Of a stretch of 64,000 nt of DNA, positions 22,270 through 59,764 are shown piece after piece. Numbering within the stretch: position 1 is the first letter of the stretch; every line of letters begins with the position of its first letter. Location of the stretch: assembly GCA_946699065.1 (NCBI GenBank), contig CAMPDV010001491.1, positions 1 to 64,000 on the forward strand, given 5' to 3'. The DNA comes from Loxodes magnus (lineage: Eukaryota; Ciliophora; Karyorelictea; Loxodida; Loxodidae). The notes beneath the pieces are model-generated. The model had not been told where the DNA came from. It worked only from the letters and a program-made list of their open reading frames with translations, and made no database searches. Both the position numbers and the translations under genes were made by a program.

Positions 22270-23215
22270 GGCTAAATGCCACTATTTATATATTTCCTTT
22301 TACCCTTAAACTTTTATTTATATGCAAATGCAGATTCTTAATTGAAAAAAAGAAATAAAATTCAAGACAACTATAAATGAATTTTTATTTCATATTTGCT
22401 AAGTTTTATTATTGAAAATTATCTTATAAATCGAATATTTTTTTATAATATCAACTTAAAAATTTTTTGAACATGATTAGTTTATATTTTTCACTTTTTA
22501 AAATAAAAGATGCTCTTTCTCTTTTATGTTACAATTGTTTATCTTCACGTTTTCCCATTCTTTTTGTATATCTTTTCTTCATACATCTTAAATTTATTTA
22601 TTTCTATAGATTTCATCATCACTTGCTACATAGATTTTCCAAAGTATTTCACAATTTTATTCTAGTTTTTATTATTTTTTGTTTATATCTTCAGCAATTC
22701 AGGTAATTATGTCCAAATTTTTATATATTTCACATTTCTTTATTTTTCTTTTTATTGTTATTGATAGTTTTCTTAGTCCTCCGAGTTTTTTTATTCTATT
22801 TCCATTTGAAAATTTTAGCTTAAAGGAGCCTAAGCTTGAAATTAAATTTATTCTTATTTTATTGTCGAATTTGTTGCGAAATTTTTTCCCATTAATATAA
22901 ATTTGGAAATTAAGGTTTATAATGAATTTTAGATTTAATTTGCTAAATTTTGATATTCCTTTCTTTTGCTTTCCAGAAGCAATCTAAGATTTTGGTTTTC
23001 CTCTTTAAATATCTATATTTCTATTTTTATTTACTCAAATAAGGAATATAATTGTCTAGATTTTCTCAAGCTTTTCATTTTTCTTGGAAAATTTTGATGC
23101 CAAATTTCTAGCATGAATAATTTTTTTTAACCCTAGAATCTTATTAATCAACGGCCGATTACGATTAGTCTGTTAATTAAGAATTTAAAATTCATTATCC
23201 CGGGCTTTTTTCCAT
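22270..23215 (-). mobile_element. Decayed Gag-type retroelement
   Basis: Starts at ATG 23215 (MEKSPGQW). One frame holds a long coiled coil (FKEENQNLRLLLESKRKEY) and the family signature FQMEIEQKN, matching PMEIEN/PMEIEQ in the other Gag copies just before their zinc knuckle. The knuckle itself is damaged, with first Cys kept and others lost or out of frame. The start, coiled coil and knuckle remnant lie in different frames, so this is an old, inactive copy. Confidence 0.6.
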
Positions 23216-24633
23216 TTTTCTATATAATATTTTTTAATTTATATAGCTAGAATTTTGCTTAATTTAGCGAATTAAAAGTTTATTTTTATAATATATTTAC
23301 AGAGCAACCGAAAATATTTTTGATTGACTATAAAATTTTCTAGTTTCGAATTTGAAAATATAGGCCAGTCTAGCATAAATTATTTGCTTATTTTTTTAAT
23401 TATAATATATGAAGATCAAATAATGAAATCTAATGAATTTCTATGGAAATAAAAAATAAAAATAATTAATTATTTATATATTTATTGTTATTTTAATTCT
23501 TTTATATTTTAATTTCTACAAGCATTAGTTTAATTAATTTAATTTAGAAAAATGTTCAGAAAGATCTAAAATTTCATTTGTTTATTAAATTTAAAATTTT
23601 TATTAATTTTAGGGGTATTTACTCAAGATTAAGCTAGCTTAGCTTCTAATTAGATTTAATTTTTTATTAGTTCATAAATGCTGCATAATTTTTTTTTAAT
23701 ATTTACTTTCTTCATAATATCTTTTAAATGTTGCTTAAAATAAATTTTCTAGAAATAGTTTTATCTTATTTACTCAATTTAATTAAGTTTAATTAAATTA
23801 AATTAAATAATTTTATTGTATCAAAATTTTAATTAAAGCTATGTTAATTTATAAAGAAAATAAATTCTTTTATTAAAGAAAATAGGGAATTTTAGATAAA
23901 ATAATAAAAAACGGAAATATGGAGATAAATAGAAAATCATAAATTTGATAAACTTGAGAATTTCATATAATTTGCATTATTTATTATTTAAGATTAATAT
24001 AATTATTTATTATAGCTTAGTTGAAATATTAGAAATAAAATATCTAATTATAATTATAATTTTATTTCAATAGAAATTATTTCATTATTTGGAAAATGTT
24101 ATTTCTATATGAAAGTTCCCTTTTAAAAATAATTCATGAAATATAAATATAACTCATTTATAAATTTACCCAAGTATTCTCCTTCTTTTTAATTAAAAAA
24201 ATTAACTAGATATTTATAGAAAAGCATTATAGTGCTTTCCTCCAAATAGAGTTTTTTAAATTTTTCTGATTAAACATATGTAAAATATATTTTCAATTAA
24301 ATAACAAATTTATATTTACTTTATCTTTTCTATTTATTTTTAACTTTGTATTAGGCTTATTAAATTAAACTTTAATTTTAATCTAATTAATTTATAACAA
24401 TTATAAATATTGAAGCTTATTTAAATAGTCCCTTTAAACTTCTTTTATTTTTATTTTTCAAGCATCTTTTTAAGAAAGTACAACTTAAAGCTTTGTTCTG
24501 ATGCTCAAAATAAATTTTTATTTTTGGTACCTTAAAACTTTTTTCTCTTGTTCGTTATAAAAATATTAAAAAAATACACTTTAAGAGTTTAAAAATATAA
24601 TTCCTATAAAATTAAATTACTTAATAATAATAA
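23216..24633. other. Very AT-rich, nothing recognised
   Basis: Long A/T runs and simple low-complexity sequence. No frame shows homology or a TGA bias on either strand. Confidence 0.4.
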
Positions 24634-25140
24634 TTAATTAAAGTGATACCACCTTTCATTAGGATCATCACTGATATAATGTTTATAAATGTTAAAAAAA
24701 GTATTCTGGATATATTCTTCATAGTCTTCTTCTGTCTTATGCTTCATTATTACATATCGACTATTACTTTTTTCTCCAGGTTTTATTATAGGGATTTGGT
24801 TAAAATCTAGTTCTTTTCCAATTATTTACTAGGGTCTAAATCATATATTTTCTTCAGGACCGATTTACTAATTTTTTACGTTTGTTATCTTAAGTCTATA
24901 AATTTTACCCTCTTGAGTAGCATACAATCTGCTTAATTTATTCAGTGTTTTTTAAATTCTTTTATTATCTTCATTTTGTTTATTTTAATATTTCCAGTAT
25001 TGTTAAATCAAAATAGATTCTTTGATGACTTAAAGTATAAATAAATATGAAAAAGGATTCTATTTAATCCACTTTTCAATGTAATTTAAAATAAAGATAT
25101 AAAATGATTGTTTGAATAATAAATGGAATAGAATACTACT
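24634..25140 (-). CDS. Unknown soluble protein, start not placed
   Basis: No family recognised. The frame reads as normal hydrophilic protein: KLSRLYATQEGKIYRLKITN, then FNQIPIIKPGEKSNSRYVIM, then HKTEEDYEEYIQNTFF, ending SDDPNERWYHFN at TAA 24636-24634. It holds one in-frame TGA (in NIWFRPQ). No ATG is seen at the upstream end, so a tiny intron or a start further upstream is likely. The 3' end is followed by a TTA-rich run like the tails of the retroelements here, so it could be the end of a mobile element. It is divergent from the SPRY gene at 25234. Confidence 0.5.
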
Positions 25141-25233
25141 GAAACTAAATAATGATACTTAATTAAATTTATTTATATAAGGAAGAAGGCAAAAGAAAGA
25201 GAAACTAGTTTACTTAACCATTTGATATCCAAG

Positions 25234-25803
25234 ATGGGAATTTATATGATGAAATACGAAATTTTCACTAATTTATGCAATGTATAATTCTGATTTAGTT
25301 AGAAATTAAAATCTGATGCTTATTATGTTATAGATAATAAAACTGGTGTTTTTAGAAATAATTTCTATTTTCCTTCTATTTTGTTAGAGCCTTCTTTATG
25401 AAAAAATAGAATTTATGCTTTTAAGTTCTAATATCTGGCTAATACGCATGCTTATTTAAAACTAGGTGTATGTAAAGCTAATTTTACTAATTTTAATTCT
25501 TGCTTTTCTGATACAAATGATGGTTGAACTTACTATCTAGCCGAGGGTTAATTACTACATAGTTCTAGCAGCCGAGTAAAATCTTATGGTAAAAGATAGT
25601 CTAAAGGAATTTATGAAATCATAATGACAGTAAATACATTTAATGGGAGCATTTAGTATAATATAAACGGAAATAACTTTGGTATAGCTTTCGATAATAT
25701 TGAAGAATTAAAAGAAGGAAATACGTATGTAGGACTGTGTTGTGGCACTGAAGGGAATAAAATATCTTTGATAGAAGCTAAAGTGAATTATATTAAATAA
25801 TGA
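25234..25803 (+). CDS. SPRY-domain protein, copy 1
   Basis: 189 residues, almost entirely one B30.2/SPRY fold. Order of motifs: KNRIYAFKF, AYLKLGVCKANF, SCFSDTNDGWTYYL, GQLLHSS, SYGK, GSIQYNINGNNFGIAFDNIE, GNTYVGLCC. These match the SPRY pattern (LGVC, G-x-x-YG, I-x-Y-x-x-NG-x-x-x-G-x-AF). SPRY domains usually bind protein or peptide partners; none can be inferred. Trp is TGA in DGW and in SLWKNR. It ends TAA TGA, the TGA at 25801. About 60 bp upstream a block (GGAAGAAGGCAAAAGAAAG) is shared with copy 3 and probably belongs to the promoter or 5' UTR. Confidence 0.85.
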
Positions 25804-25866
25804 GATTTTATTAATTTATATTAATTTAATTTTTAATTAATTAATTATTAAGATATAATATATAAA

Positions 25867-26735
25867 ATGGCTTCTAAGAAATAACAGAACTTTGAACAAA
25901 ACATTTAAACAGGAAAATAATCTAAAAAATAAAAAAATGAAATAATTACAATGAGTGAAAGTGAGAAATATGATTGATATGACGAACATTAACCACTTGG
26001 AAATCCAGAACTAAAAAAGCTTCTGACACAAACTCAAATAGAAATATTATCTAAGTCATTAAAAGAGTTTATGTTTAAAAATAGATACCTCACTGATAAA
26101 GTAGAAAAATTAGAGAAACTAATAACGTCTTTACTTGAGAAACAATATTAATAATCATAAGAAATAGAAGACAAACTGGAACAAAGAATTCTTTAAATTT
26201 AATAATAAATTCAGGTTACGCCATTTTCGTTTTAACAGAATTAATCAGATCCTATGGAAATAGAAAATGAAGCCTCAAATTAAAATAAACAGTAAACGTT
26301 TATTTAAAATAAGTAGTAAATTTAAATTAAATAAGTGTTACAGGAATAATAGTTTAAAAGAAGAATAAAATGCTACGTGTGCAATAAATAACACCAATGA
26401 AAATACTGCTACTAACTAAGCGAAATTTAAAGAAAGAATAAATAAGATATTTTTAGAAAACTATTTAGGATATATCCAACATAAAGCGGAAAAATTTATA
26501 GAAAAAATCCTTTAATTCAAATCTTAATCCTTGGATAAATAATTAGGAACGCTAAGTGCAAGACCAAAACTATTCCGAATATTAAAGGATGGTGCACAAA
26601 TGAAGTGCTACCGCCTAACTAAGCCTAGTAGGAATTCAAGACAAACTAATAGAGACAAGCTGATAGAATAGGTCAGATGGCTGACTACTAAGGCTTTAAC
26701 AAAGCTTTTTAACTTTTAACTTTTTTTTAATAAAA
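25867..26735 (+). mobile_element. Gag-type element, repeat family copy A
   Basis: One of three near-identical copies (also 45194-46060 and 58903-59764). ORF from ATG 25867: N-terminal polar region (MASKKQQNFEQN, then YDWYDEHQPLGNPELKKL), coiled coil, PMEIEN signature, then zinc knuckle CYVCNKQHQWKYC (CX2CX3HX4C). A basic tail with IYPTQSGKIYR is shared with other Gag elements. Two TGA codons are conserved as Trp in all three copies. Copy A lacks one base near 26505 and two bases near 26612 relative to B and C, which together restore the frame. It ends with AACTTTT repeats. No reverse transcriptase follows. Confidence 0.8.
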
Positions 26736-28245: not shown

Positions 28246-28252
28246 AACCAAA

Positions 28253-28806
28253 TAAAGGTAGCTACATATAAATAAGTTATGTTATTTAATAAATTATTCT
28301 CCTTTTAAATTATAATTTTTTAGTCAAAAAGCGTATTTTCAATACTAAAATAGTTAAATTCATTGAAGAGGTATTTTCTTAATAAATTCTAAGATATTAA
28401 ACTATCTTAAAACTAGCCCAAAAAAATATATATATTCTTCATTATTATTCGAAAAACGTAATTAAATCAACGCAAAATATATTTTTTATTGGAACATTTT
28501 TAAAGATCAGATCTAAACAAAATATTGTAATAATTTATCTTTAGGAAAAATAATCAATTTAAATAGAAGTAAATAAAGCAAAGTTTAAATAAATTAAAAT
28601 AAATTTTTAATTAAGCATATATATTACTATATTTATTTTTAAATTATTTAATTATTATTTGTAAAATTTAATAAATTAAGGTAAAATCAAAAATAATAAT
28701 ATTGCTCTTATTAGAAAACTCATCTAAATTAAAAAAATTAACTTTTTATATATTCTAACAAAAATATTATTTAAAATTCAAAATTTTTATAAATAAGTAA
28801 AGATTA
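28253..28806. other. AT-rich spacer, nothing recognised
   Basis: No gene or repeat supported. Confidence 0.35.
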
Positions 28807-29208: not shown

Positions 29209-31177
29209 TTATTTATATATATAATAAAATGATAAAAGCAATAAAATAATGATTAGAATAATAAAATATTAAAATAAAGAATAATTTATTCTTAATAGAT
29301 TTAAAAGATTTAATTATAATATAATATATTTTTGCTAATTTTGATTGTTAATTTAAATTATGTTGCTATTTAATTTAAAGGCTTTACATTTTACTAATTA
29401 GATTAAAGAAACATGATTTGGTATTTTTCTATCTAGATTGAATTGAATGGTAATTTTGAAATAAATAAATATCTTTTTGTTGATTTCATAAATAAATAAA
29501 AAGTTCTTATTATTAAATCTTATTAGTTTATTTAAAAAATCTTGATGCTATTATTCTAAATGATAATTTAATTATAAAGGTTAATATTTAATTAGTTTAA
29601 ATTATTAGTTATTTATTAGCAAATTATCTTAAATTAATATGTAATAGGCTAATCTTTAAAAAAGTAAAGCTTAAATTATTTTTCATTTAGCTTTATTTTT
29701 TATCTCTTTTATCTTCATAACTCTATTTAAAATAAAATAGCCTTTATCTTTTCTAGCAAAAGCATTTTAAAAGAATTTAATCCTAAAGTAAAGAAATTAA
29801 AAATATAGTAAAATTTAATATCTAATTTAATTAAAAGAGAATAATTAATTTAGATGCAATTAGTTAAAGCAATTTTATAATTTAAATACTTTTTTATTAG
29901 ATTTAAATAAATAACTTATTAGCATTTTTGATATAAATGAAAAAGATCTTTTAGAAATTTAGAATAATCTAAATATTTATGATATAAGTGCTCAACTATT
30001 AAACATTTTCTTTTTTAGTAGACTTAAATATTTATTTGCTAATTACAATTTACACCCTTTAAATATATTTAAGATATATTGAAATGTTTATTCCTTATTT
30101 AAATTAATTTACTGTATTTAAATATAAGTTTTTCATTTAAATTTTCAATATAATTTATAATAAAATAACTAAAAGTTTTTTATATTCATTTTCTATTATA
30201 AATATTAAAATAAACATTTTCATTCAAACTATTTAAAAATAAGACATTAACTTTCTTTTCAAATATAAATCATTATTGACTCAAATTAAATTTGGAATAC
30301 TTATGTAAAAGTTTATTTTTTTGTTTATATTAATCTAGAAATTATTAATCAAAGGTTTATTTTAGTAGAATATCAATTAAAATTGCTGTTTATTTTTATT
30401 TTCATTCTTATATTAATGCTTGCTTATTTTATATTGTTTATAATCCGTTTAGAGTATGCTTGATTTTGAGTAAGAACGTATTGCTATTTTATGAGTTATT
30501 TTGACTATCTCCTTAAAATATTTTCTTAGATTCTATATTGTAAAACTAAGGTAGTTTGTGATCTTATGTTTTAGTCTAATAAATTTGGTATTATTCTCAA
30601 GTTTTAAAACTAATTAATTAATCAGCAATAAAATAGCTTTTCTTGGTATCATATAGAGAAACATAAATGTATGCTTTTATCATTAGTATTATTATATTTT
30701 GATGGGGAAGTTAGGATTTAATATTTTAGAATCGAATAAAAGCAAAAAGATAGATCTTTAGTTAGACAAGTAATTATCTTGGAAATAAATAAAGCAAAAG
30801 AGAATGTATTTTATAAGTCTAGTTTATTATGATATTTCATAAATCTTAATATTATATAAAAGTAATTCACTTAAATAAGTACATCATTTTAATAACTTTA
30901 TCTATTTTTTCTTAAGAAATAAAAAGGTTTAGAATGTATAAATTAAGCCTATTAAGTGATTTTAATTATATAAATAGACTGTATTTTAAAACTTAAAATC
31001 TTCTTTATTATGCTATCAAAAAACGCTATTTATAAAGGCTTATTTATTGTTTTATTATAAATGGAATAATAAACCCTAAACTATTAAACTAAAGTATGAT
31101 ATCTAACTAAACTCATATTTTTAAGGAAGAAAACTAAGGAAATCAAAAACAATTAACTTGCACTTTATTTTTCGAGA
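29209..31177. other. AT-rich region, open but unproven frame
   Basis: A plus-strand frame is readable throughout (MIWYFSIQIELNGNFEIN near 29413), but it holds about seven TGA codons, the number expected by chance, and no domain appears. The last 90 bases carry the conserved upstream segment of SPRY copy 2. Confidence 0.3.
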
Positions 31178-31756
31178 ATGGGAATTCATATGATGAAATA
31201 CGAAATTTTCACTAATTTATGCAATCCAAAAATATTCTTAAGTAAGAAAAAAGCATCAAATTCATTTACCTTTAAAGATGCAAAGACTGTTGTTTACAAA
31301 GGAGATTGCTATTTCCCCGCTGTTTTAATAGAGCCAATTATGTTAAAAAATAGAGTTTATACATTTGAATTTTTGTATTAAGCAAAGGAAAGAGCTTATT
31401 TGAAATTAGGAGTATGTAAAGAAAGTTTTACTAACTACGACTCTTGTTTTTCTGATAAAAGTGACGGATGAACTTATTTTTTAAGTTCAGGATAACTAAG
31501 ACATAATTATAATGGTTGAGGAGAGTAATATGGAGATAGTGTCTCTGGTAATAATACTTATCAGTTAAAAATGATAGTTAATACTAGGAGTGGAAGCATT
31601 AGCTATGAGATAGATGGAGTAAACAAAGGAATAGCATTTAATGATATTGAAGAAATAAAAGAGGGAAAAACTTATGCTGGATTTTGTTGCTATTGCTAAG
31701 GTGAAGAAATAACACTTGTAAGAGCTTTAGTAAATCATGCTAAGAATGATTTTTAA
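31178..31756 (+). CDS. SPRY-domain protein, copy 2
   Basis: 192 residues, paralogue of copies at 25234 and 40317. Motifs: AYLKLGVCKESF, SCFSDKSDGWTYFL, GQLRHNYNGWGEQYG, GSISYEIDGVNKGIAFND, GKTYAGFCCY. Two Trp codons are TGA. It differs from its siblings at the end: where copies 1 and 3 meet TGA, this copy has TAA (31754-31756) right after NHAKNDF, and the next in-frame TGA is about 220 bases away. Either TAA can stop here, or this copy is read into the flank. Confidence 0.85.
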
Positions 31757-33192: not shown

Positions 33193-34032
33193 TATTATTA
33201 TTATTATTATTTTAACTAAATGTAAAATTAAAGTTTGCATATCCTGGGTTTTCAACCAGGTTTCTGCTGACAAGTTTTTTTCCATGGTTGTTCTCCACGA
33301 CCTTCTTTTAAAGTGGACGACTACCACGAAGGATTCTCTTAGTTTCTTGTTCATAGTTTCTATTTATATATTCCTTAATCAGTAATCCAAAGTTTGTTTA
33401 AGTTTCTTCAGGTCCTTTATTCTTCATTATACTTGAGTTATCTTCATTTCTTACAATGTCTTAGTAAATGATACCAAGATTAGCAGTACCAACAATTTTT
33501 ATATCATTTTTCTAATTTCTATTTTTAAAAAACTTTTTCTCCAGCATCTCAATTTTTTGTCTATGTTTGTATCATTTTTTACTTAATTTTACTTTTCTTA
33601 ATGTTGTATTTTGTGCTAATCTTCTTCTATGATCATTCTTTGTGATTAATTGAAGTTAGTTTACGACATTTCATAAAGTTAATTTTCTGTTACTACTGAG
33701 TTTTTAATCAGTTAACTTTTGAGAATTAGCAGTTCGTTATTTTTATCTTCTATGTAATTCATTAGCTCCCTGATTTTTTCTCCTTGATTAAAAAATATCT
33801 CTTCATATTTTGCAATTTTTTCTTTCATTTTTTCGATTTGGCTTTGGAGTAAATTGTTATTTTTGGTTTCAGGGTTTTATTGTTCATTCGGACCAACCAT
33901 TACTTTTCCCTCTAAAGACGAGCTAGATTCTCTATCCTGTCTTTGCTTTTTTAGCTCCTCGTTCGTCACTTGTTTTCTTGTTTTTCTTTGTTATTTCTTA
34001 GAAAGACGAATGTTCTTCTCCATTTTTTTTAA
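33193..34032 (-). mobile_element. Gag-type element with 18-bp target-site duplication
   Basis: Complete 840-bp element. It starts a few bases before ATG 34023 (MEKNIRLSKKQQRK). A charged N-terminus is followed by a long coiled coil (EKMKEKIAKYEEIFFNQGEK). A CCHC knuckle is not visible in one clean frame, so the middle is probably damaged. The C-terminus (KRRSWRTTMEKNLSAETWLK) matches the element at 5963-6441. The 3' end is a (TAA)n tail at 33193-33210. It is flanked by ATTTAAATTTATAAATAC (33175-33192) and the same with one mismatch at 34033-34050. It has no room for a reverse transcriptase, so it must be mobilised in trans. Confidence 0.8.
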
Positions 34033-34302: not shown

Positions 34303-35059
34303 ATAATAATAATAATAATTTATTAAAATTACTTCACTTTTATTTTATTTGTCGCATATTAGTTTGCTAGTTTATTGGTTTAAAAATAAATATCCACTTA
34401 AAATTTGCTAGGGTCTTCACTGTTATTTTTTCTTGATAATTTTAAAATTATTTTCCTTTATTTTTCGTATAGGTCGAATCCAAATAATTTTCCATTTAAT
34501 TCAATTATGTTCATTTAGATATAAGGAGCTTCTTTATTTAGTTGGAGTATTTTTTTCGATAGAGTAAACCTTCACTTGTGTAGTATATTCTAAATATATC
34601 TTACCATTTATTTTATATTATTCTCTTTTATTTTTATTAAAATTGGAAGCAATTTCTTACTTTATGTCCTGAACGCTTGCAATACCAGTATATCACTATT
34701 TTTCGATAGGAAAGTTTTTATTAAAGGTGCTATTCTATTTCTATTGGGTCATCCTTTTAAGGATTATTCTGGATTACATATTTTCTAATTTTAAATTTCT
34801 CTTATTATTTTTTTGTCTGTAAAATTCTACCTTAAATTTGTTGCAAGTGCGGGTTTAGAATAAATTCATATAGTTGTTTTGAATTTTCAGATTTTAGAAT
34901 TTCCATAAAGTTTAATAATTAATTAGTTCGTTGATTTAGATCTATAATAGCTTTTGCTAATTTTTAATTATCTATCTAAAGAAGGTAGAGATTATTGGCT
35001 ATATTCTGCTTAGTGTTATTAGATTTTGTTAGTGAAGTCTGTTATTTATTAGGTCTCAT
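34303..35059 (-). mobile_element. Gag-type element beside or in a Cys-rich gene
   Basis: ATG 35059 (MRPNKQQTSLTKSNN), coiled coil (AKAIIDLNQRTNQLLNFMEI), signature DPIEIE, then a zinc knuckle YWYCKRSGHKVRNC near 34660 in which the first Cys has become Tyr. After it comes IYYTSEGLLYRKK, aligning with IYPTQSGKIYR of the repeat family. It ends with a TTA-type tail at 34303-34320. It is older than the 33193 element: one knuckle ligand is gone and the frame shifts just upstream of the knuckle. The 5' edge touches a secreted-protein gene (35060-35676) on the same strand. Confidence 0.65.
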
Positions 35060-36407: not shown

Positions 36408-37158
36408 ATAATAATGCTTATAAAATGAATGGTAAGGAATAATTATCGCTATACATGAGTAAGTTTAGATTTATCTATTTTATTAGTAACTTTTATACTA
36501 AATATACTTTACAGATAGCTTAGATAAACGATTGCAACTCTTTTTATAAATCTCTTTTTAAATCTTAAATTCCCTCAATAAAAGAGACATCAGAAATGTT
36601 CGCTATAAAAAGCTGAAATATTGATATATTTGAGTTTCTTTATATAATATTTTAAGGTTTTATCTGATTCAATACTCATGGAAACTAAAGTTTTGTGACT
36701 TAATAGTTACATATTAAATATAAAATTAATGATATAATAAAGATAATCATATATCTATTTATAATTAAAGCTATATTACTTTAATTACTAATATCTCATA
36801 TATAAGCAGTTGTACAACTCTTTCTTATAATGCTTATAATTTATTGTTGCTTTAATTATTAAAAATAAATTTAATTTATTTAAATTAAATAAGTTAGGTA
36901 AAGTTTATCTAACCTTGTAATCATTCTAACTCAGAGATTCAGATAAGAATAGAATATTATGAATCTAATAGCTGATATTATAGCTTATCTAGGAAAATAA
37001 TTAATTTATTATGTAACTAACTTTCACTTAATATGAACACTAGCTAAGAAATAGCTTAAAAGTAATTATTTTTAATCTTAAAGGATTATTTTACCTAACT
37101 ATTTCACAACGAACTAACTATCACTTAATTAATTTTTTAGCATGCATTTTTTTATAAA

Positions 37159-37174
37159 ATTATTATAAAAACAG
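37159..37174. repeat. Target-site duplication, 16 bp
   Basis: Identical to 38060-38075. Confidence 0.85.
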
Positions 37175-38059
37175 ATATAAAAAAATTGGAGTCTTAAAAT
37201 CTTGTTCCCGGCTTTTTCTTGAGCAAAGAAGAGAAAAAAGCTCTAGAGAAAAAGCAGGCATAAAAAAGTATCAAGCGTCTTCTTCTCCCCACTTACAAAA
37301 CTAATAAAGAACCTAATAACTATAATAAACACCTCCTAAAGTAATAAAAAGAAAAGAATCTAATATAATAACAGGAAAAGAACTTCCATCAAAGATAATT
37401 AAAAAGGAAATCAATATTTAACAGTTAGTATTTGAAATATCCAATCTCTAAGAAGAGATTAAAGTGCTTAAGTTGGAAAATTAAGAACTAAGAAACTTAT
37501 TATCGCTTGGATAAGATAACTTAGAGATTAGAATTATTAATTAAGAAATGGAACTCCAAGCATATTGGAACATTTAAACTGAACATAGATAAGAAACAGC
37601 AAGGCTTGGAAATATCGTATAAAAACAAGAGTTGGAGTTTATTAAGCGAAACAATATTAGCACAAACATAACTAATTAGACAAATTAGATGGAATTAGAA
37701 TAAAAAGAGGTTATAAATCGAAAATCAATCAGATAAGTAAGGAAGAAATGCTACTACTGTAATAGTAAGTGACATTTGTACAAGAATTGCTAAAAATTTT
37801 AGAATTTCAAGAAAAAATTTTGGCGTAAAGAATAAGAAAAATACTAGAGGCTTTTGCAACTAGCATGGAGATATTTACAGAAGAAAATGATATGAAGTAC
37901 CTTTTGAAATAATAAGAACAAGAAAACAAAGAAACTGAGAAGACCTTAGTGAAGATAATTTCATTAGAAAATCAAGAATGATGAGAAGTGTTGCTGATAA
38001 AACAACTTATTTTAAACGTTGTCCAGATTGGCACGGTTGAACATTTTAATTTCATTATC
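37175..38059 (+). mobile_element. Gag-type element with 16-bp target-site duplication
   Basis: 885 bp. One open frame holds a basic N-terminus, long coiled coil (VFEISNLQEEIKVLKLEN), then a perfect zinc knuckle CYYCNSKWHLYKNC (CX2CX4HX4C, Trp as TGA) near 37750-37791. A basic C-terminus follows, ending near KTTYFKRCPDWHG at TGA. The expected start is TTG (AAATTGGAG) where relatives have ATGGAG, so the start codon seems lost by one substitution. Flanked by ATTATTATAAAAACAG at 37159-37174 and 38060-38075. Confidence 0.85.
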
Positions 38060-38075
38060 ATTATTATAAAAACAG
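38060..38075. repeat. Target-site duplication, 16 bp
   Basis: Identical to 37159-37174; begins within the T/A tail of the element. Confidence 0.85.
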
Positions 38076-42175: not shown

Positions 42176-44308
42176 TAGCAATATGCTAAATCACTCACTA
42201 TACAAAATGAATTGAAAAGAATTAAAATTTTAACTATTTTCAAAAAAGGAAGTAAAAATGTCTGATGTAATTGAAGACCAATAGCCCTATTGAATTGATT
42301 ACTTAAAATAGATGATAAAGCATTAACTTAAAGACTATATAATTTAATATATGAAAGAAATATCATTCATTAAGCTTAATTTTACTTTTTTCGGAAAAGA
42401 CCTACATCATAACAAATTTGAACAATTTAATAGTTTATTGACTTGCATCGTAGATGGTCACAAAAAAAATAGTTAATTGCTACTCTAATAGATGTGGAAA
42501 AAATGTTTAACAGTATACCAAGGAAATTGCAATTTGACATCCAAGAAGACTTAGATTACCTCTAGTATTGATAATGACACTTGAATCTTTTTATGAAAAT
42601 AATGAGGCTAAGTTCCTTATTGATGATAATATTACAAAATCAATTAAATTAAATAAGGAGTATTATAAGGAAGCAGCTATTGACCTGTACATGCAATACT
42701 TTATTATGATATTTTAATTAGATATTTAGAAGAAAAATAACATAAATGTGGCTATAATATCTGCTAGAGAAATTTTATCGTTAGTGACTATGCAGACAAC
42801 TTAATTGAGTTTTCTAATTCATAGTAAAATGCATAAATATTACTCAACGCCACCAAAAAATATTCTCTTGAGTAAAACTAAATATAAATGTGGAAAAATG
42901 TGAAGTAATTTAGTTCTTAAAAAAGAAAGAAAATATAATATATAAATTTAAATATTAATGGAATTCTTATTGTTTATAAGATCGAAATTACATATCTTGG
43001 ATACAGATTAAGAAATAATTAAAATTATAAACTATACTATCAAAGCAAAATATCTGAATTCAAAGTAGCAGCTTTGAAAGTATCAGCAATTATTTCTAAG
43101 TATGGAGTAATATCATCGCTCAATTTTAAAACAGTTTGCAGAAAGTTTATTTGACTAAAGTAGAATATGGAAGTAATATAAATCCTTGAAGTATCATGTC
43201 AGAACTTAAAGGAATTAAATATAAATAACACAATTAAAAGACCCATTTCAAGGAAAGCATTTAATTAGTCTTACTTCATTGATCTTAATTGACTTCCGTT
43301 TACACACATGACAATATAAAAATTCATAATCTTTTATTCCAAATTAGAATAAATCAGTAGAGAAAATCTGAACTCTGATATAGTATTCTTGTTTTCTAAA
43401 TGTATGCAATGCAATTTGTCATATATGAAATACATAAATAAAGGTCTTGAATAATATAAAATTGATATTTAAAGTGCGACAAACCTAAATGATTTTAATA
43501 AGCATATTATTCAAGAGTGAAAGGAAAATTTTTATAAGAATGCTTTTAAAGGAATACACAGATGCCTACAGCTTAAAGATACATGTAATCTATTTAAAAT
43601 AATAAAAATGTATTTCTTGAAATAACTTACACTAAATTTAACTGACATCGAATATTAGACATAATTTCTATTTTCAAACTGAGGACATTCACCTATAATT
43701 TCTAATAAGAACTTAGTTTGTGTCACATAAGCACATAAAATGGAATTGATTGAGCATGTGGTTTAGTTCAAAATGAATTTGATCATATATTTGAATGTGC
43801 CTTCTATGAAGATGTCTTTTAGGAATTATCTAATCGAAAAATATTTTTGACAAAGATTATAAAAAGCTAATTCTGTAAGACTAAAATTGTATTAATTCGA
43901 ACTTTGTAAAAAGTAAAATACCTAAGATCGACAAATGCATTAGAAGTTTTCATCAAAAATTGCTTAAAAAAAGACTATAAATTTAAAATTTTAATAGTTA
44001 AAACAAAAAGATAAATTGATGGGAGAAAAAAATTATAATTTAAGAAAGAAACTTAAGTAATAGATATACAAAATATAAGTAAGAAGAAAATTGAAAATAA
44101 TAATTGAGGGAAAAAACACTTGAACAGAATTTAGAACTATTATAGAAGAAATAAAAGAATGGGAGCAGGAAGAATTAACTAGAGGTTGATTATAAGTTGC
44201 ATAAACTATTATACTTAACATAATTCCCATGAAATAAAATTATAAGTAGTTAGTTATGTCCCAATAATCAAAGTCCTGAAACTTTTTATCTTATTATTAT
44301 TATTATTT
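42176..44308 (+). mobile_element. LINE-type retrotransposon, 5'-truncated, RT decayed
   Basis: Reverse transcriptase blocks in order: TIFKKGSK and NWRPIALLN (block 0/1) near 42233; ATLIDVEKMFNSIPR (motif A, with the Asp) near 42479; ESFYENNEAKFLIDD; GVLQGSSYWPVH (motif B) near 42657; SDYADNLIEFS (motif C) near 42790; TYLGYRLR thumb; then a C-terminal Cys/His segment LCHISTQNGIDWACG...HIFEC near 43710-43810. The blocks occupy three frames, and motif C is YADN instead of YADD. Both show it is inactive. The endonuclease end is missing. It ends in (TTA)n at 44290-44308, like several Gag elements, which suggests shared machinery. Confidence 0.85.
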
Positions 44309-45193: not shown

Positions 45194-46060
45194 AATGGCT
45201 TCTAAGAAATAACAGAACTTTGAACAAAACAGTTAAACAGGAAAATTCTCTAAAAAATAAAAAAGCGAAATAATTACAATGAGTGAAAGAGAGAAAAATG
45301 ATTGATATGACGAACATTAACCACTTGGAAATCCAGAATTAAAAAAACTTCCGACACAAACTCAAATAGAAATATTATCTAAGTCATTAAAAGAGTTTAT
45401 GTTTAAAAATAGATACCTCACTGATAAAGTAGAAAAATTAGAAAAACTAATAGCATCTTACTTGAGAAACAATATTAATAATCATAAGAAATAGAAAAAA
45501 AAACTGGAACAAAGAATTATTTAAATTTAATAATAAATTCAGGTAACGCCATTTTCGATTTAACAGAATTAATAAGATCCTATGGAAATAGAAAATGAAG
45601 CCTCAAATTAAAATAAACAGTAAACATTTATTTAAAATAAGTAGTAAATTTAAATTAAATAAGTGTAACAAGAATAATAGTTTAAAAGAAGAATAAAATG
45701 CTACGTGTGCAATAAATAACACCAATGAAAATACTGCTATTAACTAAGGGAAATTTAAAGAAAGAATAAATAAGATATTTTTAGAAAATTATTTAGGATA
45801 TATCCAACATAAAGCGGAAAAATTTATAGAAAAAAATTCTTTAATTCAAATCTTAATCCTTGGATAAATAATTAGGAACGCTAAGTGCAAGACCAAAACT
45901 ATTCCGAATATTAAAGGATGGTGCACTAATGAAGCGCTACACCGCCTAACTAAGCCTAGTAGGAATTCAAGACAAACTAATGGAGACAAGCTGATAGAAT
46001 AGGTCAGATGGCTGATTACTAAGGCTTTAACAAAGCTTTTTAACTTTTAACTTTTTTAAG
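45194..46060 (+). mobile_element. Gag-type element, repeat family copy B
   Basis: Near-identical to copies A and C, 867 bp, ATG 45195. Flanked by ATAAATATAA at 45184-45193 and 46061-46070. It keeps the knuckle CYVCNKQHQWKYC and the long C-terminal frame, but lacks one base near 45455 (LEKLIA then out of frame), so the ORF breaks in the coiled coil. The 3' end is AACTTTT repeats rather than TTA repeats. Recent by its high identity to the other two. Confidence 0.85.
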
Positions 46061-46070
46061 ATAAATATAA
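46061..46070. repeat. Target-site duplication ATAAATATAA
   Basis: Partner of 45184-45193. Confidence 0.6.
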
Positions 46071-47650
46071 GCAAATTTATTCACTTTGATAATTCTTTCT
46101 TAATTACTAAGAAATTCAGTTTTATCTAAATATAAAAAAATAGTATGAAAAAAAGTTTTATTCTCTAAGCTATTTCAAAAAGAATGAATTTTTTAGTTTC
46201 TAATTATAATTAAATATATTTAATTATTTATTAATTATTCAAATTGCTTAATTAAAAAAATTAAGTTATAAAGCTATAAATTATTAATACTTAAAATAAG
46301 CTAATGATATATTTAGTTAGATAACATTTTAAATTAGAAAGAGTAGTAGACTTATGCAGCTACGTTATGCTGTTTTTTAATTAATTTTTTTAATTTATAC
46401 TCTATTTATTAGATATTTATATAACTACATTTACGTGATAGCTTTTATGTATTAAAGTATAATGATATTAATATTCTAAATATTCAACTTTTAGTTTTGG
46501 CTAAATTTTTCAAAGTTCCTTCTATTAAAAATAGTTTTTAAATAAGATATTCATACTATCTTATAAGAGATTATTTATTACATGAAAGTGAATCTAGACT
46601 CTTTATTTGATATATCAATATCATATAATACTAAGCTTATGTCAGTAAAATAAACCAAAAGTTTAATAATATTTCCCTAAAAATTTAAATTATATTTACA
46701 TTCTAAAATAAAATTATAAGGTTAAATGATAAAGATAAAGTTGTTCTCTAATTTTTATAGTTAGTTCTTTTCATTTAAGCTAGCTAAAATATATTAATAT
46801 ATTATTTAGATATAGATAGAATAGATTTCAGGTTATTCATAGCTTATTTTTATAATATAACATTTATAATATTTATCCCTTTAATACTAATTTTATATCT
46901 CTATTAATTTATTTTCAGTCTTTTATAATGATAAAACTATAATATAATTAATCTTATAATATTTTATAAGACATTTCAATAAACAGAGAAGCAAGTAATG
47001 GGATATAGATATAATTATCCTGTTTCTTTTACTTCATTACATCTATTTAATTCTCAAATGTCACTTTTTTATCTCTTTCCATTACTTCTTATAAATAATA
47101 GTTTAAATATATCATAGATATTATTTATTCTATAACTACATCTTATAAATATATCTAAAGTATTTAAGAATAAACTATAATTCTTATATAACTAAGGCTT
47201 CTTGGCTAAATATACATTTTCAGTTTCTAACTTTAAACTAATAAAATAAACAATGCTTTTCTTATATTTAGATTGTCCTTATATATTTCTAAAAACCGTA
47301 GAAGAATATTAGCATTACTCAGATAACTATCCAATTACTCTTTCTATAAATTTATTATCTTAATCGTTTATAAATATAGATATATTTAAAGTGTACGAAT
47401 AATTAAATTGGCTATGAATTTTAATTTAGCAATCTAGATTATATACAACTAATTATTTATGCTTAGTTTAGATTTAATTTTTAATTCAAGTAAGCACTTA
47501 TTATAAATAAATTAGGTTCATTTTTCTACCTATTTAATTTTAGTTAATCTAGCCTTTAATATGTAAATATATAATAAGCACGAAGTTTTCGTATTTTTGA
47601 TGTGTTAACATATTTATGAATTTAAAGTATAAGAAAATAAAAGTTAGTAA
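46071..47650. other. AT-rich region, no supported gene
   Basis: No recognisable protein, RNA or repeat. The end must include the promoter of the RING gene at 47651. Confidence 0.35.
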
Positions 47651-49906
47651 ATGTTTAAGCTTCTACTTATTATTGCTATAATTGTAGAAGCTATTTAAGA
47701 AGATTATCTTCAGAATATGGAGTATAAATTCACCTACTATTAGTATTAATAATAGTTCTCTATTAATTGTTTTATTTTATCGCCTTATAACAGCTTCTAG
47801 CAAATTTTTTAATAGTATAACTATTTAACTATATAGATGGATATTTATAACAAAAAAAATATGGTAGAAGGTTTCAAAAAGGGCTTCTATACAGCCTCTT
47901 TCTAAGATAAAAAGGAAGAGAGGAAGCGGGAAACCTAAATTTCTAAACACTACACGTCATCTTTCAAAACCTAATCTTCTTCTTTAACCATATAGGAGCA
48001 ACTCTAAACAGCACCCTCCAGATAATCCTAGAAACACTAACATGCAACAATATCGACTGAGGACCTTCCCAAGAAGCAAAAGATTAGTAACTTTCAGGCC
48101 TAGATTAGGACATTCAACCCCTACATGGACCTCGGAGATCTCAATAAAGAAAAAATCTTAGGAATGACGAAGGAGGAAATGGCTAAGCTTATCTTAGCAT
48201 TAATAGGAAAAATAAAGATCTGGAAAAACAGAATGAAGAACTAGCTTAAGAACAGCAAGAGCATTTAGAAGATGAGGAAACCCATGCTCCTAGAAACTTA
48301 AACCAGGCGGCAATGAATATCAGAATTGACGAATTCGATAGGCAGCTGGAACAATTATATGAATCGAATGAAAATATTCATATCAAATTGGAAAAATTAG
48401 AGACAAGTGTAAAATAATAGGCTATACAATCTATCCCAATGGAGATCGAATAAGAGAATAATAAGCCGATTGAACAAACTAAAGAGAAATATTTTAGGAA
48501 AAAATGTTACATCTGCAGGAGAACAGACCACCTATGGAGACGATGCTGGAAGAGAAAGAAGATTTAATAGAAAATATGGAATGACCTAATCTAATTTTAC
48601 CCAACCAGGAATGGAGAAATTTATAAGAAGAAAACAAGCTATATGAAGAGACAACCATTCCGAAAACTTGACAGTGAAGGGAGGAGAAGACCACCTAGAG
48701 ATCAAGTTCCTATTGGTTGGATAGGGAAGTAGGAAGCTCTTAAGTAGACGATCCTTCTTTAGCACTTTAATTTAATTTAATTTAATTTAATTTAAGATAG
48801 ATGGATATCATTAGTAGTAGTTGGAATTGCTCTATGACTTTATATCCTACTAGTTCTAATTAAATTTAGTAAGATCCAAAAACTGACTGAGATGCAGTTA
48901 ATTAACATAGGAAATACTAATTTATAGCCTTGAATGCCTCTACTTCAAATTGATCTATGAGCATTATCAATTATGATATATAACAACCTTTGATATATAA
49001 CCTAACTTTCATCTATTCAATATCTTCAAGATGTCCTAAAAGTTGTAACAGCAATGGCTTTTGTGATAAAAACTGCAGATGCTAATGTAGAAGTCCTTTA
49101 ATAGGTAACGACTGTAGTATCTAAGGAACTGAAATAGCTATAGGAGAATGATTCAATATTATAATTAATTCTTCTTAGACTTAGTGACTGTATAGTTATC
49201 TCTTAAGTAATGCAAATTAAATAAAAATAAAAATCTAGCAAAAGATTATAATACTAATAAAGCAGTAAAGCTATGGAAATTCTATTTTACCTACTGAATA
49301 GAACTATTAAAAATGATAACAGCTACTTCTAATATAACTATTACTTATAAATTTTCAAGTGGTCTTTGATATTTCAAACTTATAAAGGAGACGAACTCAT
49401 AATTGAACTTATCGATAAAGTTAGAAGTTCAAAGTAAAGATGAATAGAACATAATGATGTGATGCATTATAGGAGCTGCTATTTTTAATATGATATTAAT
49501 AACTTTCTGCCTTTATAAGATATATAATGTTATTATTCGTACTTCATAGAGAATTTATGCATAAAGCTAAGAGTAAACTAATAACGAATAAATATCTAAA
49601 CTTATGTCATAAGAAAAGTTTCCGATTCTAAATTACAATGCAGTAGTCAATGATTCTAATTTTACTGATATAACTTGCTCCATTTGCTTATGTAATTTTA
49701 AAAACCAAGATTTAATAAGAAAACTTCCATGTAATCATTACTATCACAAATAGTGTATAGATTATTGATTTAAAATAAACACCAAATGTTGTATAGCAGA
49801 AGAGATTATCTAGAATATGACAGTTAAGATCAAAAGAATGAAAGCCAACTAGTAAACAGTGAAATAACGTTCGATGCTAATAATTAATCTTTGGGGGTAA
49901 ACGTGA
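47651..49906 (+). CDS. EGF-like / transmembrane / RING-H2 protein, split by a Gag element
   Basis: ATG 47651 opens a signal peptide (MFKLLLIIAIIVEAIQ). The luminal part is interrupted at 47845 and resumes at 48809 in the same frame (QMDI, then ISSSWNCSMTLYPTSSN). An EGF-like module follows (RCPKSCNSNGFCDKNCRC). The frame then changes, best explained by a 32-nt intron near 49207-49238. After it come KFSSGLWYFKLIKETN, a membrane helix (CIIGAAIFNMILITFCLY) and a RING-H2 domain (CSICLCNF, LPCNHYYHKQCIDYW). The last ligand pair reads CCIA instead of C-P-x-C. It ends at TGA 49904. The order suggests a membrane-bound ubiquitin ligase of the PA/EGF-TM-RING kind. The insert breaks the frame, so this copy should be non-functional unless the element is removed. 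Confidence 0.75.
47833..47844. repeat. Target-site duplication ATAGATGGATAT
   Basis: Twelve bases identical to 48797-48808. The ATG within it is in the same codon phase on both sides of the insert. Confidence 0.9.
47845..48796 (+). mobile_element. Gag-type element inserted in the RING gene
   Basis: 952 bp between duplications ATAGATGGATAT (47833-47844 and 48797-48808). ORF from ATG 47861 (MVEGFKKGFYTASFQDKK) with an acidic coiled coil (IDEFDRQLEQLYESNENI), PMEIEQ signature and a perfect zinc knuckle CYICRRTDHLWRRC near 48507-48548. A basic tail with FYPTRNGEIYKKK and RRRPPRDQVP follows. The two halves of the ORF are joined only if one A is added to the A-run at 48208-48212, so it has a one-base frameshift or an assembly error. 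It ends in a (TTTAA)n run at 48766-48795. GC-richer than the host gene. Confidence 0.9.
48766..48795 (+). repeat. (TTTAA)n tail
   Basis: Six pentamers at the 3' end of the Gag element, a different tail unit from the TTA repeats of its relatives. Confidence 0.85.
48797..48808. repeat. Target-site duplication ATAGATGGATAT
   Basis: Partner of 47833-47844. Confidence 0.9.
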
Positions 49907-50865
49907 GTGTCAATATTTCCATTAATCAAGTGTAACTTTAATATGTTTATAATTAATTAAATAAGCAAAGTATAAATAGCATTCAATAACTTTATTTATC
50001 AATATTATAAATATTATATATAAAGGAATGATTGCCTGAGTATTATCAAACCTTTCTTTATAAGTTATATAAATTTTTGCTAAAATAGAATTTATATATT
50101 TTAATATTTCTTAAAGTCTTTTATATTTATTATAGATAAAATATATTATTTTGTTATATATTTTTAATAGATGAAGCATTCATAAAAAAATGGAGATAGG
50201 ATAAAGAAGATAAGTCAGAGCTTAAGGTTTTATTTAAGTATTTGAATAATTATAAATTACTTGCAGATAAGAGGGGCTAGTAATAAAGCAATATCTTTTA
50301 TACAAGAAAAACATTGGATGAATATAATTTTGTGTGGTTTTAATTTTAGTAGAGGGTTTTCTTTTACGAGGCAAATAACCTCTGTATAGCAGTGTATAAA
50401 AAACTAAAAATAATAATGCTATATTAAAACTAGATTAAAAATACAATGAGAATAAAGATACTGTATAATAATAAAGCATAAGTAATCTTTAGTATATTTT
50501 ATTTCTTTATGTAGTTAAACAATAATTTAAAAATACCTTCTTCTTTATTTTCCTATCTTAACTTTCATATTTAATCTTCAGATTTAATATCATAAAGAAA
50601 AGAAACTTAAACTTTAATAAAACTGGAAATACATGAACGAGATGGTAATATTCACATAAGAAATTTATATTAAGTGGAAAAATTTGCCTTATTTAATATT
50701 CTTTTGTTAAGTTAATAAAATTTTAGCTTTAGAATAAAAAACCTTAGAAGTTTAAAAAAATAGTTCGCAAATATACGTAAAATTTAAATTTTCTTAAAGC
50801 TACTAGAAAATATTATTTCTAAGTTGAATAACTTAGGTTGATTTATAAATATAACTAAATTTTAT
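49907..50865. other. AT-rich spacer, nothing recognised
   Basis: No gene, repeat or domain supported. Confidence 0.35.
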
Positions 50866-51870
50866 GTTAATAATAATAATAAGATAAAATTTCAATACTT
50901 TGAGTATTGGGACATGATTATACTACTTATAGTTATATTTCATGCGAATTATGTTAACTATAAGAGTTGTGTAAGTTTATAATCAACCTCTAGTTAATTC
51001 TTCCTGCTTCTTTTCTTTTTTTATTCTATATTGCTTTTATGTTGTGCTTTCGCATTTTCCTCTATCTTCTAATTTTCAATTTATTCTTATTTATTTTTTT
51101 AATAGACATTACTTAAGTTTCTTTCTTAAATTAAACCCCTTTCATTCATCAATTTATTTTTTTGTTTTAATTATTAATTTTTTAATTTCTATCCTTTTTT
51201 AAGCAATTTTGGATGAAAAATTTTAATGTATTTGTCAATCTTAGGGATTTCATTTTTTGAAAAATTTGAATTAATATAATTTTAGTCGTAAAGAATTAGT
51301 TTTTTATAGACTTTGTCATAAAATAAATATCGACTAGATAATTCCTAAAAAATATCTTTATAGAAAGTACATTCAAATATATAATCAAATTTATTAGGAA
51401 TTAAACCACATGCATAATCAATTCCATTTTATTTGCTAATGTGACGCAAACTGAATTCGTATTAGAAATTATAGGTGAATATCCTCAGCTTGTAAATAGA
51501 AATAATGTCTTATATTCGTTATCTGTTAAACTTAGTGTAAGTTATTTCATGAAATACACTTCGATTATTTAAAACAGATTACATATATCTTTAAGCTTTA
51601 GACATCTGTGCATTCCTTTATAAACACTCTTATAAAAATATTTCTTTAACTCTTAGAATAATATGCTAATTTAAATCTTCTATACTTATGATACCTTCAA
51701 TATAAATCATATATAATTCAAGCATTTTATTTATGTATTTTATATACGGTAAATTGTTTATTTAAAAAATAAGCAAAAACAATACTTTTTTACTTAAATA
51801 ATTTATATCTCTATAAATGAAAATGCTATAATGGATTTATATTTTCAAATACTTTAGAAATACTCAAAAT
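50866..51870 (-). mobile_element. 3' fragment of the LINE family, second copy
   Basis: Inverted and diverged copy of 43340-44308. The match is strong at 51410-51480 (Cys/His segment, aligned with 43680-43770) and at 50930-51010 (aligned with 44180-44260), and fades toward 51870. It ends in a TTA tail read on the minus strand (50869-50882). It is 5'-truncated, lacks the RT core and holds many substitutions, so it is old. Confidence 0.75.
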
Positions 51871-57502: not shown

Positions 57503-57560
57503 CTTTTATTTTATTTTATTAATATTATTTTTATATCTTTAATAAAATAAATATAATAAT

Positions 57561-57860: not shown

Positions 57861-58384
57861 TGAAATTAAATAATTAATTTAAAAAGCTTATTGAAATATT
57901 TTAAAACTATTTCATTTAAAAAAAATTAATTAAAAAACTCTTATTTTAATTTTTATAAATTTAATCATAATTTAATAAAATTTTTTAATCTTTTTATTCT
58001 AAAACTATTGCAAATCTATTTTTATAGAAGGACTAAATACAGTAATTATTAGATAATAAATAAAGCATTTTATTATCCTTAAATATTACAATTCTTTTTT
58101 TATTTAAGCTCTATTTTATTATGCTTTTTTTATTTTTTAATGACTAAGATAAATTAAATTTTTTAATTATTAAATAATATTTTATAAAAGGAATATGTTT
58201 AAATGCATATTTGCTATTTTATTATTAAAGTTTTAAGAATATATATATTTTAATTTATTTTATGATTGAAAGCTAATTGGCGAATTTAAGAATTCTAAAT
58301 ATTTCTTTCATAACTATTCGGCCAACTTTTTATTTTTCGTTTTTTATTATTATTATTAAGCTTTAATTGTTTGATCTGATCTGA
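57861..58384. other. AT-rich spacer with (TTA)n
   Basis: TTA repeats at about 58346-58362, which read as an AAT tail behind the minus-strand cassette E. Nothing else seen. Confidence 0.4.
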
Positions 58385-58660
58385 TCGAAAGCTCAGCACC
58401 TTGTTCAGCCATAACTCATAATATACGATCTTTAAATACTAACGATTTTCAGTGGCATGTTGGAGGCAGTTGATATTTGGATTCTGCAGTCAGGGAACTC
58501 CATCGCTATGACTATCTGTCGTCAAGCCCCTGCCAAAGTAAACATGATAATTCATCTTGACTTTTATTCAGAATGTTGCATTCATACTAGTAATTTGTTC
58601 TAGTTGTAGACGAAACACTCCTCCTGAAACCGCCAAATTTAAATTATATTTTATTTTTCT
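58385..58660 (-). CDS. GC-rich coding cassette E, unknown protein
   Basis: Minus-strand frame: VSGGVFRLQLEQITSMNATF, YFGRGLTTDSHSDGVPWL, QNPNINCLQHATENR, ending YYELWLNKVLSF. It shares HSDGVP and about 20 bases around it with cassette G, and its last segment (KVLSF) resembles the ends of A-D. It thus links the two groups of cassettes. Followed on its own strand by an (AAT)n tail, which suggests retroposition. Confidence 0.45.
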
Positions 58661-58902
58661 AAGAAATTAATTAAAAGCCCTGATTTGATAAATTTTACTA
58701 AAAATTAGAGGAATTTTTATATTTTCTAGATTCATATTTTCAGTTAAGAAAACAAAGATCCATAAAATTACTTTTTTATATTTTTAAATATTAATACAAG
58801 GAAAAAATTAGATTTCTAAGAAATACTTAAAGATTAAAAAAATTTATTTATTACCAGTATAAAGAAAAGTTATTCAGATTTAACTTTTAATTTAATTATC
58901 AT

Positions 58903-59764
58903 AAAAAGTTAAAGTTAAAAAGCTTTGTTAAAGCCTTAGTAGTCAGCCATCTGACCTATTCTATCAGCTTGTCTCCATTAGTTTGTCTTGAATTCCTACT
59001 AGGCTTAGTTAGGCGGTGTAGCACTTCATTAGTGCACCATCCTTTAATATTCGGAATAGTTTTTATCTTGCACTTAGCGTTCCTAATTATTTATCCAAGG
59101 ATTAAGATTTGAATTAAAGAATTTTTTTCTATAAATTTTTCCGCTTTATGTTGGATATATCCTAAATAGTTTTCTAAAAATATCTTATTTAATCTTTCTT
59201 TAAATTTCGCTTAGTTAATAGCAGTATTTTCATTGGTGTTATTTATTGCACACGTAGCATTTTATTCTTCTTTTAAACTATTATTCCTGTAACACTTATT
59301 TAATTTAAATTTACTACTTATTTTAAATAAACGTTTACTGTTTATTTTAATTTGAGGCTTCTTTTGCTATTTCCATAGGATCTGATTAATTCTGTTAAAT
59401 CGAAAATGGCGTAACCTGAATTTATTATTAAATTTAAAGAATTCTTTGTTCCAGTTTGTTTTCTATTTCTTATGATTATTAATATTGTTTCTCAAGTAAA
59501 GACGCTATTAGTTTTTCTAATTTTTCTACTTTATCAGTGTGGTATCTATTTTTAAACATAAACTCCTTTAATAACTTAGATAATATTTCTATTTTAGTTT
59601 GTGTAAGAAGATTTTTTAATTCTGGATTTCCAAGTGGTTAATGTTCGTCATATCAATCATATTTCTCACTTTTACTCATTGTAATTATTTCGCTTTTTTA
59701 TTTTTTAGATTATTTTCCTGTTTAACTGTTTTGTTCAAAGTTCTGTTATTTCTTAGAAGCCATT
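58903..59764 (-). mobile_element. Gag-type element, repeat family copy C, probably intact
   Basis: ATG 59763. Same protein as copies A and B: MASKKQQNFEQN start, DWYDEHQPLGNPEL, coiled coil, zinc knuckle CYVCNKQHQWKYC, basic C-terminus with NPWINNQ and MADYQGFNKAFQ. It has neither the coiled-coil deletion of copy B nor the two downstream indels of copy A, so it is the best candidate for an intact ORF (about 280 residues). Differences include LLTQTKIEILSKLLKEF. Ends in AACTTT repeats. No clear target-site duplication found. Confidence 0.8.

What the first reader, a model, noticed from the sequence alone, without database searches (positions are those of the whole stretch)
22270..59764. A class of Gag-only retroelements without reverse transcriptase
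About ten elements of 480-950 bp encode only a polar N-terminus, coiled coil, a P-M-E-I-E signature, a CCHC knuckle and a basic tail with I/FYPTxxGxIYK. Five have target-site duplications of 7-18 bp, directly at the ORF ends, so they are complete units rather than LINE fragments. Known non-autonomous elements are usually non-coding (SINEs) or internal deletions. Short elements that keep a coding Gag alone, in several diverged lineages, suggest selection for the protein, perhaps to package or guide its own RNA for a LINE RT supplied in trans.
Basis: partly seen in the sequence, partly recalled or inferred. Interest (0 to 1): 0.82.

Follow-up and report, generated by a model that had tools for sequence, protein, structure and literature searches.

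The report
Protein-coding SINE-like parasites of LINEs
This ciliate genome carries several young families of mobile elements under 1 kb that encode only a Gag-like protein and no copying enzyme; one family wears the front end of one resident LINE and the tail of another, so it most likely hitch-hikes on their machinery.

Summary
The observation largely holds. The window lies in a 706-Mb assembly, almost certainly Loxodes magnus (TAA/TAG = Gln, TGA = Trp or stop). It holds 11 detectable Gag-like loci in several diverged lineages, plus one decayed candidate. Searched genome-wide, four lineages (A, D, H, K) are young, homogeneous families: in each, all 40 scored copies (the best of 1,305-2,590 unscored candidates) span nearly the whole unit at 95-100% identity. 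Where flanks were read (A, K) independent copies lie in different sequence, so the units are complete. D has a 12-bp target-site duplication backed by an empty site; A and K show none above chance. No RT follows the Gag, and the ORF1s of the three LINE families read are not hit by the Gag profile. K is chimeric: its 5' end is mostly 81-83% identical to LINE1, its 3' end resembles LINE2. Four other Gag-only elements end in LINE2-like tails, one marginally; A, D, E, G and H do not. Coding constraint is supported but modest within families. Best reading: non-autonomous, Gag-coding, LINE-mobilised elements, working like mammalian HAL1 but with a Gag not seen in the LINEs read, and with swapped LINE ends. 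An unseen LINE carrying this Gag is not excluded. New variant of a known kind.

The parts
47845..48796 (+). Element D: Gag-only unit, 16-nt leader, ATG at 47861, one frameshift, tail (TTTAA)6 at 48766-48795
   Evidence: empty site in L011; coordinates; 40 of 40 scored genome copies full length
47833..47844 (+). Left copy of the D target-site duplication ATAGATGGATAT
48797..48808 (+). Right copy of the D target-site duplication
33195..34032 (-). Element H: Gag-only unit, ATG at 34023, frameshift before the CCHC, tail of ATA/TTA repeats; duplications of 19 of 20 bp at 34052-34033 and 33194-33175
   Evidence: 40 of 40 scored genome copies full length
25867..26725 (+). Element A1 (family A), 1-nt and 2-nt deletions; end approximate
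45195..46057 (+). Element A2 (family A), two compensating frameshifts; end approximate
58902..59763 (-). Element A3 (family A), no indel against the family; end approximate
24610..25003 (-). Element K: 5'-truncated copy of the chimeric family (LINE1-like start, Gag, LINE2-like 3' end)
   Evidence: 97% over 395 bp to the full-length element in L038
27560..28285 (+). Element F: Gag-like with LINE2-like tail core CCAAATAAAGGT at 28248-28259; limits approximate
34304..35059 (-). Element I: Gag-like, first knuckle Cys changed to Tyr, marginal LINE2-like tail and (TTA)n; start is a candidate ATG
37033..38070 (+). Element E: Gag-like, frameshift after the CCHC; limits approximate
5935..6442 (+). Element G: 5'-truncated Gag-like element, 97% to a copy in L012, tail (TTA)n
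61537..62175 (+). Element J: Gag-like, decayed, LINE2-like tail; limits approximate
22270..23150 (-). Possible decayed Gag element in split frames; not significant
   Evidence: by eye; 11.8 bits, E 1.2

Best explanation
These are non-autonomous, protein-coding non-LTR elements: short mRNA-like units with a leader of 0-16 nt, one Gag-like ORF (charged or coiled-coil-like region, P-M-E-I-E-type motif, CCHC-like knuckle, basic tail), a 3' UTR and an A/T-rich simple-repeat tail. They carry no RT and amplify when RT and endonuclease of resident LINEs act on them in trans. In family K the element begins with a LINE1-like 5' end, fused in frame to the Gag, and ends like LINE2. SHOWN: unit structure, boundaries, homogeneity of the best copies, no RT in the sequence that follows, LINE-like ends of K, LINE2-like tails of F, J, an element in L013 and (marginally) I. 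INFERRED: that LINE2-type RT recognises those tails, that the LINE1-like start gives promoter or translation start, and that the Gag binds and escorts its own RNA, which would explain why the ORF is kept. Which LINE serves A, D and H is unknown.
For: 40 of 40 scored copies nearly full length in A, K, D and H. Flanks of 17 anchored A loci match only within duplicated loci; K in five distinct 5' contexts. Empty site for D. K start 74-83%, mostly 81-83%, to LINE1 5' ends, and its last 395 bp 97% to window K. LINE2-like tails in K, L013 element, F, J (p 0.002, the floor of 500 shuffles) and I (0.034). Gag frame N/S 0.67 in A, other frames 1.08 and 0.92. H vs L012 dN/dS 0.13.
Against: A, D, E, G and H tails match no LINE2 tail, and weak matches at p 0.016-0.05 to LINE1 or LINE3 tails also occur (Kf, H), so that test has background. 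Covariation over six tails is not above shuffles, and the predicted fold of the K tail alone is not the LINE2 hairpin. No TSDs above chance in A and K. K N/S not significant (p 0.16). Scored copies are the best ones. No transcript, protein or retrotransposition evidence.
Confidence: 0.7

Rival explanations
1. HAL1-style derivatives: an autonomous LINE with this same Gag as ORF1 exists or existed, and the short elements are internal deletions of it that kept ORF1 and the 3' end.
For: HAL1 arose this way several times (PMC5753468, passage). Only 150 of 3403 RVT_1 candidates were scored and only three LINE families were read. K and, weakly, D start like LINE1 ORF1.
Against: The Gag profiles find the Gag only as separate elements in 16 LINE-centred regions, not in the LINE1 or LINE2 ORF1, and not in the one longer LINE3 copy. 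K mixes ends of two LINEs, which one deletion cannot give.
Confidence: 0.2
2. Split system: the Gag-only elements are not parasites but supply a Gag that resident LINEs use, so that Gag and RT live on separate mobile units.
For: Gag and RT units coexist, are young and share ends.
Against: LINE1 and LINE2 carry their own CCHC ORF1 and the longer LINE3 copy has a coiled-coil-like upstream ORF, so they do not obviously need it.
Confidence: 0.05
3. Non-coding SINEs whose open frame is a by-product of a code without dedicated stop codons.
For: Open frames are free in this code; many window copies have frameshifts.
Against: Protein-level recognition across lineages, N/S low only in the Gag frame, third-position excess between lineages.
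Confidence: 0.03
4. Retrocopies of a cellular Gag-like gene spread by LINEs.
For: mRNA-like ends with very short leaders.
Against: Several diverged, young, high-copy families and LINE-like ends in K; a single-copy parent gene was not searched for.
Confidence: 0.02

Closest known systems
HAL1 (half-L1) of mammals
   Same: Non-autonomous, encodes only ORF1p, arose several times (PMC5753468, passage)
   Different: HAL1 derives from L1 itself; here the Gag is not the ORF1 of the LINEs read, and K takes its two ends from two different LINEs
HeT-A of Drosophila
   Same: Gag without pol; RT thought to come from TART or TAHRE (PMC5537684, passages)
   Different: HeT-A is telomeric; these elements are dispersed and under 1 kb
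LINE-tail-sharing SINEs (stringent LINE/SINE pairs such as UnaL2)
   Same: Short element sharing a 3' tail with a LINE that mobilises it (PMC4176376, passages)
   Different: SINEs are non-coding in the cases I recall; these encode a conserved protein
Autonomous LINE families of Loxodes magnus (rnd-1_family-27 and -19)
   Same: Same genome by inference; [quoted passage not shown] probably LINE1 and LINE2 here, not matched by sequence
   Different: Autonomous; that paper's main text has no hit for gag, SINE, nonautonomous or zinc knuckle (supplements not read)

Membership tests
HAL1-type ORF1-only LINE derivative | Encodes an ORF1/Gag-type protein and no RT | tested here: met
HAL1-type ORF1-only LINE derivative | The ORF is the ORF1 of the parent LINE | tested here: inconclusive
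   not found in LINE1, LINE2 or the one longer LINE3 copy; other LINE families not read; K shares only the first part of LINE1 ORF1
SINE with LINE tail | 3' end shared with a resident LINE | tested here: inconclusive
   met for K, L013 element, F, J, marginal for I; not met for A, D, E, G, H against three LINE tails
SINE | Pol III head and no protein | not tested
   no pol III box search was made; the protein-coding frame argues against it
Non-LTR retrotransposition product | Target-site duplication of variable length plus repeat tail | tested here: inconclusive
   firm for D and H and for the L012 relative of G; not above chance in A and K
Zinc-knuckle Gag | CCHC recognised by zf-CCHC (PF00098) | tested here: inconclusive
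   K Gag 19.0 bits against cut-off 20.8; no zf-CCHC hit for A Gag

The most novel reading that the evidence does not exclude
A protein-coding class of SINE: a Gag gene lineage that lives without RT as many families at once, captures starts and 3' recognition ends from different resident LINEs, and is kept by selection because the Gag delivers its own RNA to whichever LINE RT fits its tail.
Probability: 0.4. Interest if true: 0.8.

Novelty: new variant of a known kind. Interest (0 to 1): 0.62.

Why it matters
If several independent Gag-only families stay young in one genome, Gag alone must help an RNA that borrows its RT. That makes an old question, what ORF1p does and for whom (cis-preference against help in trans), testable by natural variation: families with and without LINE-like tails and starts, side by side. 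It may also account for a part of the interspersed repeats in this genome that are mostly unclassified (PMC11441545, passage).

Tried and rejected
RT hidden in the window: motif scan negative and Pfam scans of LINE-like stretches negative, yet 42200-43978 is a decayed LINE3 relative by DNA. Lax blastn scoring gave A/T noise, redone stricter. TSDs in A and K not above null. Covariation of six tails not above shuffles. Head matches other than K are weak: D to LINE1 p 0.02 and H to one LINE2 copy p 0.02 among 18 comparisons. PDB: weak hits only, among them Copia VLP protein E 0.02. Structure prediction not run: queue full. Genome-wide Gag search not obtained: protein query unanswered, alignment query not accepted. 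Literature searches without a direct precedent in ciliates; HAL1 and HeT-A came. My note says 4 of 8 K frames intact; one search shows 2 of 8 without any indel, 4 more differing only near codon 266, 2 with an early shift.

Errors of mine: protein 1 and alignment A2 read family A one base out of frame; redone, the wrong ones not used.

Full report
WHAT THE WINDOW IS. The assembly has 705,730,643 bases in 7,843 contigs. The Loxodes magnus macronuclear assembly is reported as 706 Mbp (PMC11441545, passage) and that species reads TGA as Trp or stop (same paper). The window agrees: TGA falls at aromatic positions in the knuckles and at a GW position of SPRY-like proteins (SPRY 17.6 bits, below its cut-off of 26.3). 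The species is thus an inference from size and code. With no dedicated stop codon, open frames prove nothing; coding claims rest on conservation.

THE OBSERVATION. Leaving out each of 10 lineages, the other nine find it at 6e-7 to 2e-19 (family A not included, seeds mostly picked by CCHC-like motifs). Elements in L013 and L022 were found by the first profile without being seeds. Outside the window, 7 loci lie in 155.6 kb of LINE-centred regions (6 of 16 regions), and the 20 A loci hold 6 hits besides A, two of them one duplicated locus and two weak. Such samples are biased towards repeats.

COMPLETE UNITS. Genome searches score only the best 40 of the first-look candidates, so completeness is biased upward and candidates are not confirmed copies. 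A: 2590 candidates, 40 of 40 at 96-100%, starting at 1-28 and ending at 886-905 of 905. K: 2368 candidates, 40 of 40 at 97-100%, starting at 1-15 and ending at 895-912 of 912, several of the top ones duplicates of one locus. D: 1305 candidates, 40 of 40 at 95-100%, starting at 1-12, ending at 932-942 of 942. H: 2230 candidates, 40 of 40 at 96-100% over 824-826 of 826 ends. In 17 of 20 A loci both ends could be anchored. Their flanks match each other only within duplicated loci: L025/L026, L030/L038 and L032/L033/L039 on both sides, L035/L036 on the 3' side only; A1 and L037 also look like one duplicated site. K was read in five distinct 5' contexts.

INSERTION. D lies in a 2.9-kb repeat whose other copy, in L011, has the empty site; the duplication ATAGATGGATAT is at 47833-47844 and 48797-48808. 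H has 19 of 20 bp, the L012 relative of G 15 of 16 bp. Of 20 elements tested against cross-paired flanks, 3 are below 0.05; A and K show nothing above chance. Elements start 0-16 nt before the ATG, and LINE1 leaders are as short, roughly 10-17 nt. The 3' ends carry an untranslated stretch and a simple-repeat tail.

NO RT, AND THE LINES READ. LINE1 is about 5.5 kb with copies 87-98% identical and a 70% relative in L013; LINE2 about 5.4 kb, two copies 97% identical. Both have an ORF1 with another knuckle. LINE3 has Exo_endo_phos_2 and RVT_1; L016 and L045 are one locus, truncated within the endonuclease, and the single longer copy (L046) has a coiled-coil-like upstream ORF by eye. Gag profile hits in the LINE regions are separate elements beside the LINEs. 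Only 150 of 3403 RVT_1 candidates were scored, so other LINE families may exist, and a genome-wide search for Gag next to RT could not be run.

SHARED ENDS. In L038 and L030 (one duplicated locus) a full-length K element lies directly behind an A copy. Its start is 74-83% identical, mostly 81-83%, over 104-144 bp to nine LINE1 copies, and its last 395 bp are 97% identical to window K. The intact L030 copy begins MAGFKKGFFTTSSEQERKPEA, against MVSFKKGFYTTSSEQERKPEA translated from LINE1 (sequence), and runs on into DPMDIE, CWFCRKPGHFVRQC and YVTQEGKIYR. D begins MVEGFKKGFYTAS, a weak match (p 0.02, one of 18 comparisons). The LINE2 tail is matched by K, the L013 element, F and J at the floor of 500 mononucleotide shuffles and by I at 0.034; A, D, E, G and H do not match it; weak matches to LINE1 or LINE3 tails at 0.016-0.05 show the background. 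LINE2 RNA folds into a hairpin better than most shuffles (10 of 200 as good); K alone folds differently. LINE2 and K differ in the outer stem by a G-C to A-U exchange, but over six tails pairing and covariation are not clearly above shuffles. LINE2 is young: 8 of 40 scored 3' ends, the query among them, are identical over 163 bp.

IS THE PROTEIN KEPT? Of 18 A copies (five near-duplicates dropped; A1 and L037 both kept), 13 have no indel. The Gag frame has 73 N and 37 S against 82.1 and 27.9 expected (0.67, p 0.049); the other frames give 1.08 and 0.92; shared variants alone are not significant (0.63, p 0.31). K: 21 N and 12 S against 24.6 and 8.4 (0.60, p 0.16); 2 of 8 copies have no indel, 4 differ only near codon 266, 2 have an early shift. 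Pooled by my arithmetic: 94:49 against 106.7:36.3, z about -2.4. Between lineages ten pairs give dN/dS 0.13 to 0.68; the lowest is H against the L012 element (160 codons, dS near saturation), several others cross frameshifts; LINE1 ORF2 gives 0.09. The protein has been constrained, less than an RT.

MECHANISM. The anatomy fits a short mRNA that makes Gag and is reverse transcribed in trans by a LINE RT that recognises its 3' end, as shown elsewhere for stringent LINEs and their SINEs (PMC4176376, passages). For K the partner would be LINE2-like; for A, D and H it is unknown. Why the Gag is kept is inferred: it may escort its own RNA.

KNOWN OR NEW. ORF1- or Gag-only non-LTR elements are known: HAL1 (PMC5753468) and HeT-A (PMC5537684), passages seen. 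Different here is the combination: several young, diverged Gag-only families in one genome, a Gag that is not the ORF1 of the LINEs read, units under 1 kb, and in K a start from one LINE with a tail like another. The Loxodes paper's main text does not mention gag, SINE or non-autonomous elements.

Noticed in passing
25107-25742, 31057-31743, 40196-40882: Three dispersed paralogues, 68-72% identical, of a SPRY-like protein with TGA at a conserved Trp (SPRY below cut-off).
   Followed up: partly
42200-44305, 50868-51756, 60889-61433: Decayed 5'-truncated relatives of LINE3, 69-81% to L016.
   Followed up: partly
46057-50198: A 2.9-kb repeat at 90-93% to L011 and L014 that holds the D insertion; its nature was not worked out.
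   Followed up: no
50198-50207: Empty site of the LINE1 copy in L011.
   Followed up: partly
L030, L038, L047-L049; L009; L013: An A copy runs directly into a K element (duplicated locus). In 2 of 16 LINE regions a same-strand Gag element starts within about 100 bp behind a LINE. Possibly tails are insertion hot spots.
   Followed up: partly
G000:C5131 and C20: RT hits recur at spacings of 2532 bp (and 2504 bp in C5131), as in tandem arrays of a LINE piece.
   Followed up: no
17099(+), 7756(-): Cysteine-rich repeat proteins.
   Followed up: no
63129-63201: tRNA-Glu (ttc).
   Followed up: no
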